40,128 bases of DNA, taken from NCBI GenBank assembly GCA_947573135.1, contig CANPDU010000031.1, positions 1 through 40,128 on the forward strand, given 5' to 3'. The DNA is from an uncultured Bacteroidales bacterium (GTDB lineage: Bacteria; Bacteroidota; Bacteroidia; Bacteroidales; Muribaculaceae). Position numbers and translations under genes: made by a program. The notes under the pieces are model-generated. The model was not told the origin of the DNA, did no database searches, and saw nothing but the letters and a program-made list of their open reading frames with translations. The number at the start of each line of letters is the position of its first letter. Within the stretch, counting starts at the first letter, position 1. Below, piece after piece: positions 10,373-19,080 of the stretch.

Positions 10373-10404
10373 CTGAAAGCGGTGCGTCAGCGCACCACTT
10401 TCAG
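10373..10404. repeat. Long stem-loop spanning a stop codon
   Basis: CTGAAAGCGGTGCG (10373-10386) pairs with CGCACCACTTTCAG (10391-10404) with a single C-A mismatch and a 4-nt loop. The stop codon of the upstream secreted protein gene (10387-10389) is in the loop, so half of the stem is its last codons. No T-run follows in the direction of transcription. It may act in attenuation, mRNA processing or stabilisation between the two genes. Confidence 0.6.
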
Positions 10405-12393
10405 TGTTTTTCCGGCCACACGCACAACATATACGCCTCTTGCGCTGACGGTCAGCCTGACGAGTTGTGAGCCGCTCTTGTCTGTTGCGACGGTGCGTCC
10501 ACTCATGTCAAGGATCTCGATGTTGTCTCCGTCGGGATTGATCACATTGATGACGCCGTCAGTGACGAAGGCATTGGGCTGTGCGCTGTCATACTCAATG
10601 TCATTGATGCCTGTGGACTCGACTGAATAGGAAGCATCGGCCGAGAACGGGCTGCGCACGTATTCGTTGACCGAATAGTGCATGCTGTCCCAGATCTCGC
10701 GCACGGCCTGAATGCGGACAACGAGGGCACTGCCGCGCAGAAGACTGTTGACGGGCAGTGATATTTCGTTAGTCTCCGCTTTGGCCCTGCTGTATGGCAC
10801 GCTGACCTTTTCGCCGGCCTTGAGATCCTGAGAGATGACGATGTTGTCGATGTAGATCGCTCCGGCGTTGGCAACGAATTCGACAACCGATTTCGATGTG
10901 CCGCCGCCGAGCGTCATGGTGTGGCTTGTCCATTCTTCGGGAAGTTTGCCGGTGATGTCATTGTCGGTGGTCACCAGTTTTTCCTTGCCGTCCTCGATGA
11001 TATATTTCATCGTGCGGAATGTCATGGTGCAGAGGTCGGTGGTATTGACTTTCTGTCCGTAGAGGTCGGCCGAGACATTCACCTTGCCGCTGGCGGCGCT
11101 GAGATCCAAAATCGGAGACTCGAGGAATACGAGATAGCCGTATGCTTCGTCATAGGCGCCCATGAGTCCGTAGGCCTGATTGATGTGAAGCGGGAACTGC
11201 GCGATCCATCCCGGCTGTTCGGTCCATTCGTCGAGCTCTTCCTGAGAATTCCAGGGTACCTCGGGTTCGAGATACGTGCCTTCGTTGACGAGACGATCAA
11301 ATGTTTCGTGCGAAAGGACATAGGTCTCGTCGGCCTCGGCCTGATGGGCGCGGAAAGCTTCAATGTTATAATATTCGGCACCCTTGACGGCGTCCCATGT
11401 TATCCTGATATTGTCTTCGTCGATCTTCGTGATGGCAATATTTGCCGGCACAGTGAGCGACTGCACTTTGACTGCGTTGGATTCAGGTGATTGCACGCCG
11501 TTGCGGACAGCCTTTACTACATAGTAGAAGGTGTTTGTCGGGGTGTCGAGACCGGTGAAAGTGTGGCGGCATTCATTGACGCTGAGATCCTCGACGATAT
11601 ATCTGCGAGTCTTGTCGCGGTCATCGTTGATCCGGTACATACTGATGAGATATCCGTCGGCGCCTTCGACCGGATTCCAGTTGGCTGTGAAGCTGTCGTT
11701 TGTGAAGTTCGAGAAATCTGTTGCTATAGGCGCGCTGATCTTGGGATCGAGCATCTTGATCTCGATGTCGTCGACAAAGACCGGCTCGTCGTAGCCGCTG
11801 AACTGGAAGAAATAGTCCGAACCCGGACGTTTCTTGGAAAATACGAATTTATAGTCTTTCCACTCGTCGTAGACATACGCATAGTCATTGGTGAATGTGA
11901 AAACATCGTCCGGGTTGCTTGCGTCGGCCACATAGACCTCAACCCAGTCCCGTTCGACCTGTTTGTTGGCGAGCCTTGCCTTGAATGTGACCGTAACGGG
12001 CGTGTCCCCGGCAGGGATACGCAGTACGGGAGAACATAGGTTTGCGTTTGTGTTTTTTGTGCGGTCGATCAGCACACAGCCGCCTGCCTGATAGACATAA
12101 TATGCGCTCCAGTTTGGTGCGGAAGTATATTCCGGCGGAATAAAGCCGTCGAAAGCGGTTTCATCGGGGGTTCCGATGCTTCCGGCAGTACACTTGTCGA
12201 AATTTTCCGCCACAAGCATGGTCACGTTATAGATGTCGCTCTCGGATGGCTGTGATGCCTTAGTCATAATTATGTCATGACTGGCATATTTCGGAGCATT
12301 TCTGTGAATGTGTCCAGCAGGTACTGACTGGGCTGCCGACATCGTGGCGGTGATAAGTAACTGAGTGAAAGCTGAGAGTAAAAGTTTTTTCAT
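10387..12393 (-). CDS. Secreted fibronectin type III protein with T9SS sorting domain
   Basis: A 668-residue exported protein. Signal peptide at about 1-22 (MKKLLLSAFTQLLITATMSAAQS). A jelly-roll domain of the choice-of-anchor type covers about 60-210 (AENFDKCTAGS...WVEVYVADAS...FVDDIEIKM). A fibronectin type III domain follows at about 215-310. A second FN3-like domain begins near 313 (NIRITWDAVKGAEYYNI) but appears interrupted by another jelly-roll (ETFDRL...IYIDNIVIS) before its last strands (VVRIQAVRE...RSPFS) return. The final 75 residues are a T9SS type A sorting domain (IEILDMSGRTV...GVYVVRVAGKTLKVVR). It is likely anchored to or released from the outer membrane. First gene of the three-gene secreted operon; the binding partner is unknown. 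Confidence 0.87.
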   Translation of the reverse strand: MKKLLLSAFTQLLITATMSAAQSVPAGHIHRNAPKYASHDIIMTKASQPSESDIYNVTMLVAENFDKCTAGSIGTPDETAFDGFIPPEYTSAPNWSAYYVYQAGGCVLIDRTKNTNANLCSPVLRIPAGDTPVTVTFKARLANKQVERDWVEVYVADASNPDDVFTFTNDYAYVYDEWKDYKFVFSKKRPGSDYFFQFSGYDEPVFVDDIEIKMLDPKISAPIATDFSNFTNDSFTANWNPVEGADGYLISMYRINDDRDKTRRYIVEDLSVNECRHTFTGLDTPTNTFYYVVKAVRNGVQSPESNAVKVQSLTVPANIAITKIDEDNIRITWDAVKGAEYYNIEAFRAHQAEADETYVLSHETFDRLVNEGTYLEPEVPWNSQEELDEWTEQPGWIAQFPLHINQAYGLMGAYDEAYGYLVFLESPILDLSAASGKVNVSADLYGQKVNTTDLCTMTFRTMKYIIEDGKEKLVTTDNDITGKLPEEWTSHTMTLGGGTSKSVVEFVANAGAIYIDNIVISQDLKAGEKVSVPYSRAKAETNEISLPVNSLLRGSALVVRIQAVREIWDSMHYSVNEYVRSPFSADASYSVESTGINDIEYDSAQPNAFVTDGVINVINPDGDNIEILDMSGRTVATDKSGSQLVRLTVSARGVYVVRVAGKTLKVVR

Positions 12394-12666: not shown

Positions 12667-13980
12667 TTAGTCGATCTTTTCGTCAGCCTCGTAGCCACCC
12701 ATTTCGCGGATAGCGTTCTTGAGCATAACGTACTGCTGGAAGAGGTGGTTGACGGGAACTTCGCCTTTTGTGTAGTCGTGCATCGGGCTCTTGAGGAAGA
12801 AGCTGAGGAAGCGCTGTATGCCGTGACGGCCTGCGCGAGCAGCGAGATCACTCAGGAGAACGAGGTCGAGGCAAAGAGGAGCAGCGAGGATTGAGTCGCG
12901 GCAGAGGAAGTTGATCTTGATCTGCATGGGGTAGCCCATCCATCCGAAGATGTCAATGTTGTCCCAGCCTTCTTTGTTGTCGTTGCGCGGGGGATAGTAG
13001 TTGATGCGCACTTTGTGGAAGTAGTTAGTGTAGAGATCAGGCTGCTCTTCGGGAACGAGAATTGACTCGAGTGTAGACAGCTTGCTGACTTCTTTTGTGC
13101 GGAAGTTGGCGGGTTCGTCAAGCACAAGTCCGTCGCGGTTGCCGAGGATGTTGGTTGAGAACCATCCTGAAAGACCGAGGCAACGAGTTCCGATAATAGG
13201 AGCGAAGCCTGACTTAACGAGTGTCTGACCTGTCTTGAAGTCCTTGCCGGCGATAGGCATGCCAGTCTTTTCGCTGAGTTCCCACATAGCAGGAATATCG
13301 ACAGTTGTGTTGGGCGCACCCATGATGAAAGGAGCCCCTTCGGTAAGAGCTGCATATGCATAGCACATAGACGGAGCGACATGCTCTTTGTCGTCGGCTT
13401 TCATAGCGGCTTCGAGAGCAGCAAGCGAACCGTGAACCTTTTCATCAACCGGGACATAAACTTCAGTAGAGGCGGCCCAAAGTACTACGATACGGTCAAC
13501 GCCTTTTTCTTTCTTGAAGTTGCGGATGTCTTCGCGGAGCTGCTCAACCATCTCCCAACGTGTTTTGCCGACCATGATGTTGTCACCGTCGAGGCGCTTT
13601 GCATAGTTGTGGTCGAAAGCGGCTTTGAGGGGCTTGATGGCTTCAAGTTCCTCTTTAACGGGGTTGATATCTTTTTCTTTGAGGACTTCGGCATTGATTG
13701 CGGATTCGTATGCGTTAGCAGGATAAACGTCCCAAGATGCGAATACGATATCGTCAAGTTTTGCCATCGGCACGATTTCGTCATATTTGAGATATTTTGT
13801 CTCTTTGCCGTCGCTTACGCGGATTTTATCGTACTGAGTCATTGATCCGACGGGCTTTGCAAGACCTTTACGGGTCATAAGAACACCGGTCATGAAAGTT
13901 GTAGATACTGCACCGAGGCCAACAACCATCACACCGAGTTTGCCCTGTGCGGGCTTAACATTACTTTTGCTCATTGTCAA
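12667..13980 (-). CDS. Myo-inositol-1-phosphate synthase
   Basis: Inositol-3-phosphate synthase family (MIPS): converts glucose-6-phosphate to myo-inositol-phosphate in an internally NAD-balanced reaction, the first step towards inositol lipids. The N-terminus has the dinucleotide-binding loop VVGLGAVSTTF at about residues 19-29. The central part contains VLWAASTEVYVP (about 158-169), the MGAPNTTVDIPA segment (about 217-228) and a GKDFKTGQTLVKS segment (about 247-259) that matches the catalytic region of the family. The 437-residue length fits bacterial enzymes. A second ATG two codons in is an equal start candidate. It lies downstream of CDP-alcohol phosphatidyltransferase and acyltransferase genes, which fits phospholipid synthesis with an inositol head group, as known experimentally in Bacteroides thetaiotaomicron. 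It has its own candidate promoter in the 264-bp gap upstream and a clear terminator downstream. Confidence 0.92.
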   Translation of the reverse strand: MTMSKSNVKPAQGKLGVMVVGLGAVSTTFMTGVLMTRKGLAKPVGSMTQYDKIRVSDGKETKYLKYDEIVPMAKLDDIVFASWDVYPANAYESAINAEVLKEKDINPVKEELEAIKPLKAAFDHNYAKRLDGDNIMVGKTRWEMVEQLREDIRNFKKEKGVDRIVVLWAASTEVYVPVDEKVHGSLAALEAAMKADDKEHVAPSMCYAYAALTEGAPFIMGAPNTTVDIPAMWELSEKTGMPIAGKDFKTGQTLVKSGFAPIIGTRCLGLSGWFSTNILGNRDGLVLDEPANFRTKEVSKLSTLESILVPEEQPDLYTNYFHKVRINYYPPRNDNKEGWDNIDIFGWMGYPMQIKINFLCRDSILAAPLCLDLVLLSDLAARAGRHGIQRFLSFFLKSPMHDYTKGEVPVNHLFQQYVMLKNAIREMGGYEADEKID

Positions 13981-14119
13981 ATAGGTTTTTGATTGAGAAG
14001 TTATTTTACGAATTTTTTATTTCTTATTTAATTTTATACTAACCGAAGCTTGGCCGAGGCCGGGGAAATCGGTCTGTAAAAGTACATATAGTTTTTGAAC
14101 TGCAAAAAAGATTATAGCA

Positions 14120-14152
14120 TAAAGATAGTAAATATTTGCAAAATAATGCAAA
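14120..14152 (-). promoter_or_regulatory. Candidate promoter of the inositol-phosphate synthase gene
   Basis: On the minus strand TTTG (14152-14149) is followed after 21 nt by TATCTTTA (14127-14120), one mismatch from TAnnTTTG. A tandem repeat of 10 bp, GCAAAATAAT twice at 14138-14157, overlaps the upstream box. The expected leader is about 130 nt and contains a GC-rich block at about 14044-14072. Confidence 0.45.
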
Positions 14153-14244
14153 ATAATCGACTATATCATTAAATAAACATAAATCACACCCATACAGTGG
14201 GCTGTTTGTTTAATAAAGGTTAATTGTGGTTAAGGCCGAATCAC

Positions 14245-15228
14245 TTAATATTTTGAAGCGGTTAATTCGCGTGTGAAGCGGCGGCATATGGATTCGTGTC
14301 TGACAACCATGTAGACAAGCAGACTGTTGAGAACTACGATTTCAAAAGCGAAGTATAGCCAGGGCATCTTTAGGAACAGTGAGATAAATAAAGCTATACA
14401 ACGCCAGTTGAAAGACAGAATATTGGTGTATTTCATCAGAGGTAATGACGCTTTGCGGAAATCATCGCGAAACTGCTGAGGGATACGCCCGTCGGGGAAA
14501 CGGGCCGCCAAAGCAGCGCGTAATTTCTGCATTGCCGGAGCAGTGGCTTCCTGCTGGACGGTGTAGTTGGTGTAGAACGTAAGTGTCAGTTTCTTCCAAA
14601 AGTCATGACTCCACGAGAGATCGGCGAGGCGTTGTTTCAACTTTGAAGCTGTATCAAGCTCACTGCCGTCCTCGCCTTTGAGGAAATAGAGGTGGAACTG
14701 GCGGTAGTAGTCGGCCATGGCAGCCTGTTTGGCATGACAAAGTCCGGCGAAGACAGCTATAGTCCAGATGATCCAATGATGCTCGCTGAAAAAGTCTGAA
14801 GTGATGTTTTCACGAAGACATATCGCAATATATATCGCAGCAAACCAAAAGTCACCGCTAAGGCCGTCGAGAATACGACCGATGCGTGAGTACTGTTTTG
14901 TCATTCGAGCGAGCTGTCCGTCGGCACTGTCAAATGAGTTAGCCCAGATAAGGAGTAGCATGCCGATAACGTTGATCCACATTTCAGGGAAATAGAAGGC
15001 CACGCCCGCGCCTATACCGATAAAGATAGACGCAATCGTGATAGCATTCGGTGTGACGCCGAGGCGCTTGGCAAGGCAAGCCCATGCATATCCTATGGGT
15101 CTGTAGAACACCAGATCGATGCCTTCCTCTGAGTCAAGTGATTTCAGAGACTGAAGGTATGCACTTTTTTGTTTTTCTGTAGTTGCAGATGATGTTGTAT
15201 GTTGATTATGTGAAGACTGGTCTGACAT
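14245..15228 (-). CDS. CDP-alcohol phosphatidyltransferase, possible phosphatidylinositol-phosphate synthase
   Basis: Integral membrane enzyme that joins a CDP-activated diacylglycerol to an alcohol. The signature is at residues 100-126: Asp100, Asp103-Gly104, Ala107-Arg108, eight residues, Gly117, three residues, Asp121. The last aspartate of the canonical motif would be residue 125, but that is Gly and an Asp stands at 126, a one-residue shift. Hydrophobic helices flank the motif (about 61-80, 83-97, 127-137) and return near the C-terminus. At 327 residues it is longer than PgsA or PssA, with a polar N-terminus and a soluble insertion at about 180-265. It starts 6 bp after the acyltransferase gene, and the inositol-phosphate synthase gene follows, so inositol-phosphate is a plausible acceptor. 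That assignment is inference from context; another alcohol is possible. Confidence 0.85.
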   Translation of the reverse strand: MSDQSSHNQHTTSSATTEKQKSAYLQSLKSLDSEEGIDLVFYRPIGYAWACLAKRLGVTPNAITIASIFIGIGAGVAFYFPEMWINVIGMLLLIWANSFDSADGQLARMTKQYSRIGRILDGLSGDFWFAAIYIAICLRENITSDFFSEHHWIIWTIAVFAGLCHAKQAAMADYYRQFHLYFLKGEDGSELDTASKLKQRLADLSWSHDFWKKLTLTFYTNYTVQQEATAPAMQKLRAALAARFPDGRIPQQFRDDFRKASLPLMKYTNILSFNWRCIALFISLFLKMPWLYFAFEIVVLNSLLVYMVVRHESICRRFTRELTASKY

Positions 15229-15234
15229 AACGGG

Positions 15235-16086
15235 TTATTTTAGTTTGGAAAGTTGGTAAGTTTTTTCTCTTAAAAATTTTCCGAGATTTTCAGGGTTCTG
15301 ACTGTGCAGAGCCTGTTCGGCCGGCGATATCGGCTGACCGATGCTTATATGAATTTCAGAGCCTACTTTGCGAAAGACTTCAGCCGGAAGGCGTAGAGAC
15401 CTTGCGGGCCAGCAGATATGGCCAAGCAGATTGCACCACCAGCTGTTGCCCCCATGAAAAAATATGGGAATTACCGGAACTTTGGCCCGATATATGATCT
15501 GAAGTATCGATTTCTGCCATTCGCGGTCCTGCAGCCCATGACGGAGAGTTGTTTTACTCATTGCGCCGGCAGGGAAGAAGCCGACAGGATTACCGTCGCT
15601 CAGCTGACGGAGCGCCTGCCGTATGCCGTTGACGGAGACAGAACGTTTCGAAGGGTCGGTCGATGCAAGCGGATCGACGGCAATGAAATTGGGCCGCATA
15701 GCACTGATCTGATTCAGAATCATATTGACCAGAACTTTGAACTGCGGACGACGAGAACCGACGAGGTAAATCAACGCAATCCCGTCGAGTGCTCCGAACG
15801 GGTGATTGCTGACGGTTATAAACGCGCCTTCAGGGAGATTATCGAGTATCTCTTCGTTGTCAACGCGCAAAGTGAGCTTAAATTCGTCAAACAACAAGCG
15901 TCGGGTGAATTCGGGACCCGGAGTGTCGCAACAATTGGCGTGGACACGATTGACTTTGTCAACGGACAGAAAGTGGAGCATCCAGTTGACTAATTTCTCA
16001 TGTCCGTCAAGTTTTGGCACCATACGCCGAATATCGTCGTAGTTGAGTACGTCGGGTCGAATGTCTATATTGTCTTTGTCAGTCAT
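15235..16086 (-). CDS. PlsC-like lysophospholipid/O-acyltransferase
   Basis: A 283-residue acyltransferase of the LPLAT/PlsC superfamily. The catalytic block is SNHPFGALDG at residues 93-102 (His95, Asp101), the HPFGxxDG variant of hemolysin-like acyltransferases rather than the Hx4D of classical PlsC. The second conserved block GFFPAGAMSK (about 173-182) takes the place of FPEGTRS. VPVIPIFFHGGNS (about 209-221) is a third typical block. There is no full-length membrane helix, so it is probably a peripheral inner-face enzyme. The same family includes the O-acyltransferase of glycine lipid synthesis in Bacteroides, which is an alternative role, but no N-acyltransferase partner is here. It sits between the ATP-grasp gene (45 bp) and the phosphatidyltransferase gene (6 bp), pointing to membrane lipid synthesis. 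Confidence 0.85.
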   Translation of the reverse strand: MTDKDNIDIRPDVLNYDDIRRMVPKLDGHEKLVNWMLHFLSVDKVNRVHANCCDTPGPEFTRRLLFDEFKLTLRVDNEEILDNLPEGAFITVSNHPFGALDGIALIYLVGSRRPQFKVLVNMILNQISAMRPNFIAVDPLASTDPSKRSVSVNGIRQALRQLSDGNPVGFFPAGAMSKTTLRHGLQDREWQKSILQIIYRAKVPVIPIFFHGGNSWWCNLLGHICWPARSLRLPAEVFRKVGSEIHISIGQPISPAEQALHSQNPENLGKFLREKTYQLSKLK

Positions 16087-16131
16087 TATTTTCTATACAT
16101 TATTATATATAATAAAAACATACGGGAGAGA

Positions 16132-17001
16132 TCAATGACGATTGGATGATGACCGTGTTTTGATGGCGCTCATGATATATTTAGCAATCTGGACTGCTGC
16201 TTCCTGGCGGCAAGGCGCAAAACTTGGCCAGTCATCAAAGTCGATGATACGCATTCTGCCGTCGGGTGAAATGATGCAGTCTCCGCCGTAAATTTTTACG
16301 TCGAGAACGTCTGCGGCTGCGGTACACAAGGCTTTCAAACGTTCTTCATCGAAGTCGGGAGAGACCTGACGCTTTGATGCGAGTCTTCTGTCAGCTGAAG
16401 AATCGCTAGCCGAAAGCCAATAGAAAAAAGATGTGCCGGCTATGCCGTAGAACTTTATCTGCTCTCCGTCAATGTGGCGGTTGATGACCGCGCGCTTGAT
16501 GCCACGGAGGAAATATTCCTGAAGGATTTCCTGAGCCTCCTCGGGATGGCGGACGTAGGTGACATCCTCATTGTGCATGGTGTGGGAGTCGCCACGTTTT
16601 AGCCAGCAACGGGAAATGTGAGCTTTGGCAAGAGAGTCGCGTATGGCTTCATCGGTGCTAACTATTATGCTTTCAGGGTAGGGGATGTTACTGCCCATCA
16701 GTATGCGAGCCATTCGTTCGCGGATGCAATTTTCAATACCATATCCTGAATTAATTACGAGGGCACCGTTGTCTTCAAGATCCTGCAGACGAGCGATAGA
16801 TCTTGGTTCGCGACACATGTTAACAATTATGTCTTCATGCACCCCCGACGATATGAACTGTTCTTCGCTATAGACATTAAGTTCGCAACCACGTTTACGC
16901 AGCTGATCGGCAACAATGTTGAAAATAGAGGAGTCGTTGCCGATGTGATTTGGAGAAAATGCTCCGGCTCTCATTATGCCGGCAATTTTGATATCAGCCA
17001 T
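16132..17001 (-). CDS. ATP-grasp family protein, unknown substrate
   Basis: A 289-residue protein with the ATP-grasp layout: an N-terminal alpha/beta domain, the pre-grasp helix with INSGYGIENCIRERM (about 83-97), the ATP-binding strand CWLKRGD (about 132-138), the adenine-pocket segment RAVINRHIDGEQIKFYGIAG (about 170-189), and a metal-binding end GGDCIISPDGRMRIIDFDDWPSF. The last metal site reads DFDD where RimK-like enzymes usually have ExN. Members ligate a carboxylate to an amine or thiol via an acylphosphate. The substrate cannot be read from sequence. The neighbours are a sirtuin 36 bp upstream and a lipid acyltransferase 45 bp downstream, so modification of a lipid head group or a small molecule are both possible. 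Confidence 0.8.
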   Translation of the reverse strand: MADIKIAGIMRAGAFSPNHIGNDSSIFNIVADQLRKRGCELNVYSEEQFISSGVHEDIIVNMCREPRSIARLQDLEDNGALVINSGYGIENCIRERMARILMGSNIPYPESIIVSTDEAIRDSLAKAHISRCWLKRGDSHTMHNEDVTYVRHPEEAQEILQEYFLRGIKRAVINRHIDGEQIKFYGIAGTSFFYWLSASDSSADRRLASKRQVSPDFDEERLKALCTAAADVLDVKIYGGDCIISPDGRMRIIDFDDWPSFAPCRQEAAVQIAKYIMSAIKTRSSSNRH

Positions 17002-17037
17002 AGAGCGATGAAAGGGAAAAGAATGAGAACAAAATAA

Positions 17038-17712
17038 TCAAATAATTTCGGAAAGGCGGCGAATGCCTTGCGAAGCAGTCGCCCGGATGACGTTTACCCC
17101 GGGAGGCACTTCGGCGGGATTAGGATCGATATAGAATACGGGAGTGCCTTTTCTTACGTAATGAAGAAGTGCTGCTGCAGGATATACCACAAGGCTTGTG
17201 CCTATAATAACGAATATGTCGGCTGAACGAACGATTTCAGTCGCAGGTTCGAAATTAGGAACAGCTTCCTGAAAGAAAACGATGTGCGGCCGGACATGGT
17301 GGCCTTCAATCACAGTGTCGGGAGTGGTCACGTATTCTTCAGGGCGAAGAGTGAAGACGCGAGAGTCATCATCGACAGCACGAACTTTCATGAGTTCGCC
17401 GTGCAGATGGAGAACGTTGCTGCTGCCGGCCCGTTCGTGGAGGTCGTCAACGTTCTGGGTGATGATCATCACTTCGAAGCGTTTTTCGAGTTCGGCTAGG
17501 GCAATATGTCCCTCGTTTGGCGAGCAATTGATCAACTGGGCACGCCTTTCGCTATAAAAACGGTGAACGAGAGCCGGATTGCGGGCATATCCATCCGCAC
17601 TGCAAACATCCATCACGGGGTAGTTTTCCCACAAACCGCCAGCATCGCGGAATGTAGAGATGCCGCTTTCGGCGCTCATGCCGGCCCCGGTAGAAATGAC
17701 AAGTCGTTTCAT
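17038..17712 (-). CDS. cobB: NAD-dependent protein deacylase, sirtuin family
   Basis: A 224-residue sirtuin that removes acyl groups from lysine using NAD. The NAD-binding motif GAGMSAESGISTFRDAGGLW is at residues 9-28, TQNVDDLHERAG at 85-96 and the catalytic histidine in LHGEL at about 103-107 (His104). Tyr53 and Arg56 form the YxxR pattern that marks class III (SIRT5/CobB-like) desuccinylases. The four zinc cysteines expected after HGEL are absent; the only cysteines are at 37 and 63, so the small domain probably folds without zinc. It begins 12 bp after ftsZ, so it is probably transcribed with the division cluster. Targets are unknown. Confidence 0.93.
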   Translation of the reverse strand: MKRLVISTGAGMSAESGISTFRDAGGLWENYPVMDVCSADGYARNPALVHRFYSERRAQLINCSPNEGHIALAELEKRFEVMIITQNVDDLHERAGSSNVLHLHGELMKVRAVDDDSRVFTLRPEEYVTTPDTVIEGHHVRPHIVFFQEAVPNFEPATEIVRSADIFVIIGTSLVVYPAAALLHYVRKGTPVFYIDPNPAEVPPGVNVIRATASQGIRRLSEII

Positions 17713-17724
17713 CTCATATTATAG

Positions 17725-19080
17725 TTACAGATCATCATCGAATTCAATTTCGATAGTCCCGGAAGCCTTTTCCTGAGATTTCGGCTGAGGTTGTTCGGCT
17801 CGGCGCGTGTTGTCGGGAGCAGGACGAGATACAGAAGCCGAAACCGATTTCTTTTTGCGATTGTAAGCAGGAGCTTTTTCGAAAGCATCTATTGCTTCGT
17901 CGTTGTCAAGCTGTTCGGGTTCGAGTATCATATAGTTCATTACATCGCGCTGCCTCTGCATTTCGTCTACTTTCTCGTCACCATAGAAATCGCGGATGCG
18001 GTCAATGTCGATTGTCGCCTCATCATTTTTTGCAGCGGGTCCGGCAATCTGAATTGTATCGGCGGCATTTTTACCTTCGCGAACAGTTACATCGAAACCG
18101 GCGGCAAGGATCGTGAACTTGACCTTATCGCCAAGAGTGTCATCGTAGGTTATGCCCCATATTACATCGACATCTTCGTCGATCTTTGAAACAAAATCGT
18201 CGATCTGCTGTGACTCCTGAGCCTTAAACGGCATCTGAGACTTACGAGAATAGCATAGATTGAAAAGCAGGCGTTTGCTTGAGAACACATCGGTGTTTTT
18301 TAGAAGCGGAGAATGGAGTGCGTCTTCGATAGCGGCAGTCACGCGGTTCTCGCCTTCGCCATAACCGATAGAAATCAGAGCAGTGCCACCATCGCGAAGA
18401 GTGGTGTCGACGTCGTTCATGTCGAGGTTGATCTTGCCGGGGTTTGTGACGATTTCCGAAATACTCTGAGCGGCAATCGACAAAGTGTCGTCGGCTTTAG
18501 CGAAGGCGCAGTCGAATTCAAGGTCGGGATATATCTCTGACAAGCGCTCGTTATTTATAATGAGCAAGGCATCGACATAACGCCCCATTTCGTCGGCACC
18601 GACAATGGCCTTGTTGATTTTACGCATGCCTTCGAAGCGGAATGGTATGGTAACGATGCCGATAGTCAGCAGACCACGTTCGCGAGCAATTCGAGCGACA
18701 ACAGGTCCAGCTCCAGTACCGGTGCCACCGCCCATGCCGGCAGTAATGAAAACCATGTCGATCTCCGGAGTAAACAGTGCGGCAATCTCTGCTGCGCTCT
18801 CTTCGGCGGCTTCACGAGCTTTTTCAGGTTTATTACCGGCTCCACGACCTTTTGTAGTGTTAGGGCCAATCAATAATTTGTTAGGAACAGGAGACGTTTT
18901 AAGAGCCATGTCATCGGTGTTGACCACAACGAAAGAGACGCCGTGGATCTTGGCTTCGGTGTACATGTGGTTTACGGCATTGTTGCCTCCTCCGCCTACC
19001 CCAAGAACCATTATCCGGTCGGGAGCTTGGGGCGACTCTTTGTATTTGTCGAGATACTGGAAATCAGATTCTTCGCTCAT
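17725..19080 (-). CDS. ftsZ: Cell division protein FtsZ
   Basis: Tubulin-like GTPase that forms the division ring. Nucleotide loop VLGVGGGGNNAVNHM at about 25-39 and the tubulin signature GGGTGTG at 117-123, then the T7 catalytic region around DLEFDCAFAKADD. The core ends near residue 330. It is followed by a long linker (about 345-437, with basic and Ser/Pro/Gln-rich stretches) and a C-terminal peptide GTIEIEFDDDL that lacks the usual DIPAFLR-type FtsA/ZipA-binding sequence. It is 451 residues, longer than many FtsZ because of the linker. It begins 41 bp after ftsA, and the sirtuin follows by 12 bp. Confidence 0.98.
   Translation of the reverse strand: MSEESDFQYLDKYKESPQAPDRIMVLGVGGGGNNAVNHMYTEAKIHGVSFVVVNTDDMALKTSPVPNKLLIGPNTTKGRGAGNKPEKAREAAEESAAEIAALFTPEIDMVFITAGMGGGTGTGAGPVVARIARERGLLTIGIVTIPFRFEGMRKINKAIVGADEMGRYVDALLIINNERLSEIYPDLEFDCAFAKADDTLSIAAQSISEIVTNPGKINLDMNDVDTTLRDGGTALISIGYGEGENRVTAAIEDALHSPLLKNTDVFSSKRLLFNLCYSRKSQMPFKAQESQQIDDFVSKIDEDVDVIWGITYDDTLGDKVKFTILAAGFDVTVREGKNAADTIQIAGPAAKNDEATIDIDRIRDFYGDEKVDEMQRQRDVMNYMILEPEQLDNDEAIDAFEKAPAYNRKKKSVSASVSRPAPDNTRRAEQPQPKSQEKASGTIEIEFDDDL

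What the first reader, a model, noticed from the sequence alone, without database searches (positions are those of the whole stretch)
12667..17712. Inositol phospholipid module attached to the end of the division cluster
Sirtuin, ATP-grasp, PlsC-like acyltransferase and CDP-alcohol phosphatidyltransferase run in one direction from ftsZ with gaps of 6-45 bp, then a 264-bp gap leads to myo-inositol-1-phosphate synthase. Inositol synthesis plus CDP-alcohol transfer plus acylation suggests a membrane lipid with an inositol head group. In Bacteroides thetaiotaomicron inositol lipids are made by a comparable synthase-transferase pair, but the ATP-grasp and acyltransferase partners and the position behind ftsZ are not, as far as I know, part of that description. 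No inositol-phosphate phosphatase gene is here, so the product could keep its phosphate or be finished by an enzyme elsewhere. Coupling to divisome genes hints that lipid supply is co-regulated with division.
Basis: partly seen in the sequence, partly recalled or inferred. Interest (0 to 1): 0.75.

Follow-up and report, generated by a model that had tools for sequence, protein, structure and literature searches.

The report
Relocated inositol-lipid genes with ATP-grasp enzyme
Behind the cell-division gene ftsZ, this gut bacterium carries a moved and trimmed copy of a known set of genes for inositol-containing membrane lipids; comparison shows that an unexplained ATP-using enzyme in it is a regular part of that gene set, and it may be a bacterial relative of the kinases that phosphorylate inositol in plants and animals.

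Summary
The five genes are real and placed as described. ATP-grasp, CDP-alcohol transferase (CAP) and MIPS belong to the Bacteroidetes 'alternative' inositol-lipid cluster of Heaver 2022 (PMC9246714). In 40 other Muribaculaceae loci found by the CAP, ATP-grasp is present in 39, an NTP transferase in 38, a HAD hydrolase in 35, MIPS in 26, the acyltransferase in 5, ftsZ or sirtuin in none. The ftsZ-sirtuin-ATP-grasp order recurs in only 3 of 80 further loci, so the division link is clade-specific; MIPS has its own conserved promoter-like element. This genome has an NTP transferase on another contig and no full-length HAD match: a reduced variant. New: the ATP-grasp protein, which the paper's main text does not mention, lies between NTP transferase and CAP in 26 of 27 Bacteroidales loci, is fused to one or both in 4 of 27, and its profile's best solved relative is an inositol phosphate kinase (5e-10). 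Fold comparison favours RimK-like ligases slightly, so kinase versus ligase is open. The CAP family has glycine at the usual last aspartate (35 of 35). Reactions, acceptor and product are inferred.

The parts
12667..13974 (-). myo-inositol-1-phosphate synthase (MIPS); only PF01658 match in the genome
   Evidence: PF07994 2.8e-101 and PF01658 5.3e-30; one match in the genome; likely start ATG at 13974
14078..14106 (-). promoter-like element TTTG-N18-TACTTTT in front of MIPS
   Evidence: same element 119-136 bp upstream of MIPS in window, L108 and L109; 2-4% of shuffled gaps carry any match; the window gap has a second, unshared match further upstream; the Bacteroidales promoter consensus itself is recalled
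14245..15228 (-). CDP-alcohol phosphotransferase (CAP), predicted inositol-phosphate transferase with Gly at the usual fourth Asp
15235..16086 (-). PlsC-like acyltransferase related to the OlsF N-terminal half and GlsA; optional partner of CAP
   Evidence: PF19576 1.2e-21; NF052615 135 of 620 bits, NF053697 120 of 260 bits; present in 5 of 40 family CAP loci and in the CAP-paralogue loci L276 and L277
16132..17001 (-). ATP-grasp enzyme, core partner of CAP; candidate ITPK-like inositol (phosphate) kinase
   Evidence: 39 of 40 family loci; NTP-ATPg-CAP order in 26 of 27 order loci; profile best hit 1z2n ITPK1 5.1e-10; ATP-grasp fold
17038..17712 (-). SIR2-family sirtuin; neighbour of ftsZ, probably not part of the lipid pathway
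   Evidence: PF02146 2.3e-39; after ftsZ without lipid genes in G052
17725..19080 (-). ftsZ, end of the division cluster, upstream neighbour of the run
   Evidence: TIGR00065 312.5 bits, cut-off 295.2

Best explanation
The window holds a relocated, reduced form of the Bacteroidales CDP-inositol lipid cluster. MIPS turns glucose 6-phosphate into inositol monophosphate. The NTP transferase on contig C26 activates it with CTP to CDP-inositol. The window's CAP moves inositol phosphate onto a lipid, probably dihydroceramide, since the genome has a serine palmitoyltransferase. The ATP-grasp enzyme works at or next to the activation step, most likely as an ITPK-type kinase that makes or further phosphorylates inositol phosphate for the NTP transferase. 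The PlsC-like protein adds an acyl chain to the lipid acceptor or product. The position behind ftsZ-sirtuin is a clade-specific insertion that probably gives read-through transcription of ATP-grasp, PlsC and CAP, while MIPS has its own promoter. Shown: gene identities, order, conservation, fusions, predicted folds. Inferred: every reaction, the acceptor, the kinase role, transcription.
For: Cluster identity: ATP-grasp 39, NTP 38, HAD 35, MIPS 26 of 40 family CAP loci; NTP-ATPg-CAP in 26 of 27 order loci, HAD in 25. Co-occurrence among 247 order genomes: ATP-grasp 31, CAP 35, both 30 (lists compared by eye; Fisher 2.7e-32 on these numbers, relatedness ignored). Fusions: NTP+ATP-grasp in one frame in L237, L245, L246 and NTP+ATP-grasp+CAP in L244, 4 of 27 loci from 3 genera. 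CDP-inositol: own NTP transferase's best NCBIfam hit is the inositol-1-phosphate cytidylyltransferase model NF041135, 56.9 bits; CAP model fits IPCT-DIPPS at rmsd 2.8 over 189 residues. Kinase: profile top hit ITPK1 1z2n 5.1e-10, ITPK4 4.9e-5, human ITPK1 2.8e-4 (with the narrower alignment 1z2n 5e-4); the family's D-x-N-D-W-P-S-F motif matches ITPKs (DVNVFPSY, DLNYLPSF, DINAFPGY) where RimK has EVN. Ceramide: SPT NF047600 662 bits, cut-off 640; two PF01066 proteins in the genome, PssA beside PSD and this CAP. Relocation. Promoter.
Confidence: 0.55

Rival explanations
1. The ATP-grasp protein is a RimK/LysX-type ligase that joins an amino acid or other carboxylate to the head group, the lipid or a protein of the pathway, so the product is an aminoacylated inositol lipid rather than a phosphorylated one.
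Against: ITPK1 scores above any ligase in the profile search, 5.1e-10; D-x-N in most of the family in place of RimK's E-x-N; fusion to the nucleotidyltransferase fits a kinase-activation pair.
Confidence: 0.3
2. The CAP moves the head group onto diacylglycerol, giving ordinary phosphatidylinositol, and the acyltransferase supplies or remodels the glycerolipid.
For: Profile relatives of the CAP include choline/ethanolamine phosphotransferases CEPT1 and CHPT1, which use diacylglycerol; Heaver et al. proposed diacylglycerol as the acceptor of this transferase (section 10 read); the module contains a PlsC-like enzyme.
Against: B. vulgatus and P. veroralis, which lack the BT genes, were confirmed to make inositol dihydroceramide; an SPT-like gene lies about 5 kb from the cluster in L305 (by eye; Pfam gives only the general PF00155); a CAP paralogue stands near a glycerol-3-phosphate cytidylyltransferase-like gene in L276, which would fit the phosphoglycerol dihydroceramide that Heaver et al. 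think Porphyromonas makes.
Confidence: 0.35
3. The arrangement behind ftsZ reflects a functional coupling of inositol-lipid supply to cell division.
For: Same order kept in L108, L109 and L149 with ATP-grasp identities of 77-91% to the window, and 4-bp overlap of ftsZ and sirtuin genes in L108 and L149, so read-through is likely.
Against: No ftsZ in 40 of 40 other family CAP loci and in 77 of 80 ATP-grasp loci, although some of these contigs are short; sirtuin follows ftsZ in 1 of 29 other family ftsZ loci, without the lipid genes; MIPS has its own promoter-like element.
Confidence: 0.1

Closest known systems
B. vulgatus-like alternative inositol-lipid cluster (Heaver et al. 2022, PMC9246714; abstract, section 10 and passages read)
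   Same: MIPS, a CDP-alcohol transferase and an NTP transferase; proposed CDP-inositol route without a phosphatidylinositol-phosphate intermediate
   Different: Here the NTP transferase is on another contig and of a second type, HAD is not found, an acyltransferase is added, and the run sits behind ftsZ-sirtuin. The paper's main text has no occurrence of ATP-grasp; its locus tags RS13095 and RS13105 leave room for a gene between NTP transferase and transferase, which I could not look up
B. thetaiotaomicron BT_1522-1526 cluster
   Same: MIPS plus an enzyme of the CDP-alcohol transferase family
   Different: Window CAP scores 24 of 350 bits on the BT1523 model; no BT1522-1525-like gene in the window. 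In 24 of 80 related loci BT1522- and BT1523-like genes are embedded in the same cluster
Archaeal IPCT-DIPPS (inositol-1-phosphate cytidylyltransferase / CDP-inositol transferase)
   Different: The archaeal enzyme makes a soluble solute and has no ATP-grasp domain (both recalled)
ITPK family of inositol phosphate kinases
   Same: ATP-grasp fold; best profile match; D-x-N metal motif in most members; ITPK1 is described as acting on inositol 3-phosphate, the MIPS product (PMC12077091, abstract and passages read)
   Different: Remote; no Pfam PF05770 match for the window protein; the review PMC8024741 (passages read) mentions ITPKs in eukaryotes and Lokiarchaeota, and the passages name no bacterial one; substrate unknown
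RimK/LysX ATP-grasp ligases
   Different: RimK has E-x-N where this family mostly has D-x-N; weaker profile score

Membership tests
Heaver 2022 alternative inositol-lipid cluster | MIPS homologue | tested here: met
   PF07994 and PF01658
Heaver 2022 alternative inositol-lipid cluster | CDP-alcohol phosphatidyltransferase of the same family | tested here: inconclusive
   a CAP family member that stands beside NTP transferase and HAD in Bacteroidales loci; direct comparison with BVU_RS13105 was not possible
Heaver 2022 alternative inositol-lipid cluster | NTP transferase | tested here: met
   not in the window; on contig C26, 40% to the common type, 69-71% to L051 and L052
Heaver 2022 alternative inositol-lipid cluster | HAD hydrolase | tested here: not met
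   best own match 64 bits over half the profile
Heaver 2022 alternative inositol-lipid cluster | inositol dihydroceramide in the membrane | not testable with these tools
   needs lipid mass spectrometry
B. thetaiotaomicron BT_1522-1526 cluster | BT1523-type PIP synthase | tested here: not met
   two PF01066 proteins in the genome, PssA and this CAP; CAP 24 of 350 bits on NF052561
B. thetaiotaomicron BT_1522-1526 cluster | BT1522-type inositol ceramide synthase | tested here: inconclusive
   no match in own genome, but without positive control
ITPK inositol phosphate kinases | Pfam PF05770 match above cut-off | tested here: not met
   no Pfam match for the window protein; one of 54 members of the alignment at E 0.0053
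ITPK inositol phosphate kinases | closest solved relative by profile | tested here: met
   1z2n 5.1e-10 ahead of 7drm 2e-6 and RimK 1.7e-4; also first with A2, 5e-4
ITPK inositol phosphate kinases | D-x-N metal-binding motif | tested here: inconclusive
   D254 and N256 nearly invariant in the family, but the window protein and L108 have D at 256; ITPK alignments
ITPK inositol phosphate kinases | kinase activity on inositol phosphates | not testable with these tools
   needs enzyme assay
RimK/LysX ligases | ATP-grasp fold of this type | tested here: met
RimK/LysX ligases | E-x-N metal motif as in RimK | tested here: not met
   D at the first position in the window protein and nearly all of 35 members
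CDP-alcohol phosphotransferases | full motif DxxDGxxARx8Gx3Dx3D | tested here: not met
   first seven motif residues kept, last D is Gly in 35 of 35; Gly also invariant in the 40 sequences of A6
CDP-alcohol phosphotransferases | fold | tested here: met

The most novel reading that the evidence does not exclude
Bacteria of this phylum use an ITPK-like ATP-grasp kinase, coupled or fused to a CTP:inositol-phosphate cytidylyltransferase and a CDP-alcohol transferase, to build the inositol head group before it is placed on a sphingolipid, so that gut bacteria could make phosphorylated inositol lipids, or salvage free inositol, by a soluble route unlike the eukaryotic lipid kinases. The window lineage, in which no HAD is found, would be a form whose product keeps the extra phosphate.
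Probability: 0.25. Interest if true: 0.85.

Novelty: new variant of a known kind. Interest (0 to 1): 0.6.

Why it matters
Inositol lipids of B. thetaiotaomicron were reported to affect capsule expression, antimicrobial-peptide resistance and fitness in mice (PMC9246714, abstract). The second route to them is a hypothesis with three enzymes. The data here add a fourth, nearly constant member, suggest that it acts at the activation step because it is fused to that enzyme, and hint that the HAD is tied to the type of NTP transferase and not to lipid transfer: 0 of 5 loci with the window genome's type of NTP transferase have it, against 110 of 117 with the common type. If the ATP-grasp enzyme is an inositol phosphate kinase, it would bring a kinase family described from eukaryotes and Lokiarchaeota into common gut bacteria. 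All of this is testable with purified proteins.

Tried and rejected
Rejected: the sirtuin as part of the lipid pathway (follows ftsZ without lipid genes in G052). Rejected: BT1523-type enzyme. Rejected as general: coupling to division. Considered: that the CAP is PssA; PssA is elsewhere beside PSD. Considered: that HAD was merely moved; a profile of 20 HADs gave only a half-length 64-bit match and two weaker ones in the own genome. ITPK1 does not appear among the 50 fold rows; this does not exclude it. Literature: in the rows listed by the searches I saw no title or abstract start describing an ATP-grasp enzyme in this cluster or an ITPK in bacteria; several of these searches had far more hits than rows listed, most subscription papers are not held, Heaver's figures and supplement were not read, and PMC4431377 (a divergent ATP-grasp clade) and PMC10191378 were listed but not read. 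The 2019 ITPK1 paper was not held. Passages of PMC12275187 on a cytidylyltransferase for ceramide phosphoglycerate were read and are not used as evidence.

Limits of counts: the family loci are 40 of the 49 other genomes with a CAP match at E<=1e-34 (counted by eye; nine were not fetched). Absence near contig ends is not absence. The ftsZ survey looked 1.5 kb beyond ftsZ in 29 of the 57 other matching genomes, two of them cut short by the contig end. PlsC (24 of 80) includes L136, where it is 9 kb away on the other strand.
Full report
1. What is there. The window is one whole contig (C31) of a 2.85 Mb genome in 56 contigs. Behind ftsA-ftsZ the minus strand carries SIR2, an ATP-grasp protein (ATPg), a PlsC-like acyltransferase, a CDP-alcohol phosphotransferase (CAP) and MIPS, with gaps of 12, 36, 45, 6 and 264 bp. 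Pfam names these except ATPg, whose AlphaFold model (pLDDT 88.9, pTM 0.85) is an ATP-grasp fold.

2. Where these genes live in relatives. The CAP was sought in 59 genomes of the family; of 49 other genomes with a match at E<=1e-34 I fetched 40 loci. In them ATPg is present in 39, an NTP transferase in 38, a HAD hydrolase in 35, PdxA in 34, MIPS in 26, GtrA (BT_1524-like) in 13, BT1522-, BT1523- and BT1525-like genes in 7 each, the PlsC-like gene in 5, and ftsZ or SIR2 in 0. The common order is PdxA-NTP-ATPg-CAP-HAD-MIPS. This agrees with the alternative inositol-lipid cluster that Heaver et al. described from B. vulgatus (section 10 read), plus an ATPg gene. That the B. vulgatus proteins are of the same families could not be checked directly.

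3. The division link. The order FtsZ-SIR2-ATPg-PlsC-CAP-MIPS recurs in L108 and L109, and in L149 up to the contig end inside ATPg: 3 of 80 loci. In L108 and L149 ftsZ and SIR2 overlap by 4 bp. Among 29 other ftsZ loci of the family, SIR2 follows ftsZ in one (G052, same genus), where the lipid genes are elsewhere; in one (L082) a PlsC-like match at 57% follows ftsZ. I read this as SIR2 belonging with ftsZ in this genus, and the lipid genes having been inserted behind it in a small clade. The CAP-MIPS gap carries TTTG-N18-TACTTTT at 119-136 bp before MIPS in the window, L108 and L109, which resembles the Bacteroidales promoter (recalled). Read-through from ftsZ into ATPg-PlsC-CAP is likely, MIPS is probably separate; there are no transcript data.

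4. The rest of the pathway in this genome. An NTP transferase is on C26 (40% to the common type; 69-71% to those of L051 and L052), beside a GtrA-like gene. Its best NCBIfam hit is the archaeal inositol-1-phosphate cytidylyltransferase model, 56.9 bits, but a glucose-1-phosphate uridylyltransferase model is almost level at 55.5, and both are far below cut-off; the common type scores 40.8 on a GlmU-like model and 38.9 on the inositol model. A profile of 20 HADs finds no full-length HAD. The genome has a serine palmitoyltransferase over its cut-off (662 bits, cut-off 640), so sphingolipids are likely. Two PF01066 proteins are found, PssA and this CAP. No BT1522-like protein was found, without positive control. 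Across 122 loci with an NTP transferase, the five closer to the window genome's type lack HAD, while 110 of 117 of the common type have it (sets overlap and some contigs are cut). HAD therefore seems tied to the NTP transferase step; I take this as evidence against, not proof against, the proposal that HAD is the ceramide-transfer enzyme.

5. ATPg is a core part. In 247 genomes of the order, 31 have ATPg and 35 have the CAP at E<=1e-20; 30 have both (lists compared by eye; Fisher 2.7e-32, relatedness ignored). The five genomes with CAP alone score 134-376 bits, the unsplit CAPs of the others 462-532. Of 27 loci fetched, 26 show NTP, ATPg and CAP in this order and 25 a HAD; the exception L247 has ATPg with BT-type genes and MIPS. 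NTP and ATPg share one open frame in L237, L245 and L246, and NTP, ATPg and CAP in L244; L245 and L246 are one genus. In the phylum, 38 of 296 genomes match at E<=0.001, of which 12 (own included) at E<1e-60; the remaining 26 are weak, 20-34 bits. Eight loci of the strong ones were read: eight of eight have NTP, ATPg, CAP and HAD; six have MlaE/MlaF/MlaD-like genes between NTP and ATPg (by eye; Pfam checked in L299 only).

7. The transferase. The CAP model matches AF2299 and the archaeal IPCT-DIPPS (4mnd, rmsd 2.8 over 189 residues). In 35 of 35 members the last aspartate of the classical motif is glycine, followed by D or N; the genome's own PssA and the BT1523-like protein of L064 keep the aspartate (by eye). 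The CAP paralogues of L276 and L277, from genomes without ATPg, also have glycine there; a PlsC-like gene is adjacent in L277 and two genes on in L276, where a glycerol-3-phosphate cytidylyltransferase-like gene lies two genes before CAP. This suggests a CAP family that pairs different cytidylyltransferases with PlsC-like partners.

8. Two routes side by side. In 24 of 80 loci BT1522- and BT1523-like genes lie in the same cluster, mostly between ATPg and CAP. The two routes are therefore not simple alternatives in this family, and may make different products.

9. Verdict.

Noticed in passing
L299, L300, L301, L302, L303 (phylum-level loci): Clusters with an aminotransferase-like gene before CAP and a GFO/IDH/MocA-like oxidoreductase after it, plus MlaE/F/D-like genes; Pfam names were checked in L299 only. 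An amino-inositol head group would fit.
   Followed up: partly
L299 6669-8361 and L300 6480-8152: The ATP-grasp gene is present as a tandem pair.
   Followed up: no
L276 and L277: A CAP paralogue in genomes without the ATP-grasp gene, with a PlsC-like gene nearby; in L276 also a glycerol-3-phosphate cytidylyltransferase-like gene, an SDR and a flippase-like protein: a candidate phosphoglycerol-lipid cluster.
   Followed up: partly
L082 2900-3709 (G009): A PlsC-like match at 57% identity to the window's follows ftsZ in another genus, without SIR2 or ATP-grasp in the 1.5 kb seen.
   Followed up: no
L037, L042, L045, L047, L049: MIPS in these 5 of 26 family clusters is only 57-60% identical to the window's, in the other 21 it is 83-92%: two MIPS types in the same place.
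   Followed up: no
L037 and 33 other family loci: PdxA (pyridoxal phosphate synthesis) is present in 34 of 40 family CAP loci, mostly just before the NTP transferase; reason unknown.
   Followed up: no
10387-12393: Next to MIPS is a fibronectin-III protein with a T9SS sorting tail, apparently unrelated to the lipid genes.
   Followed up: no
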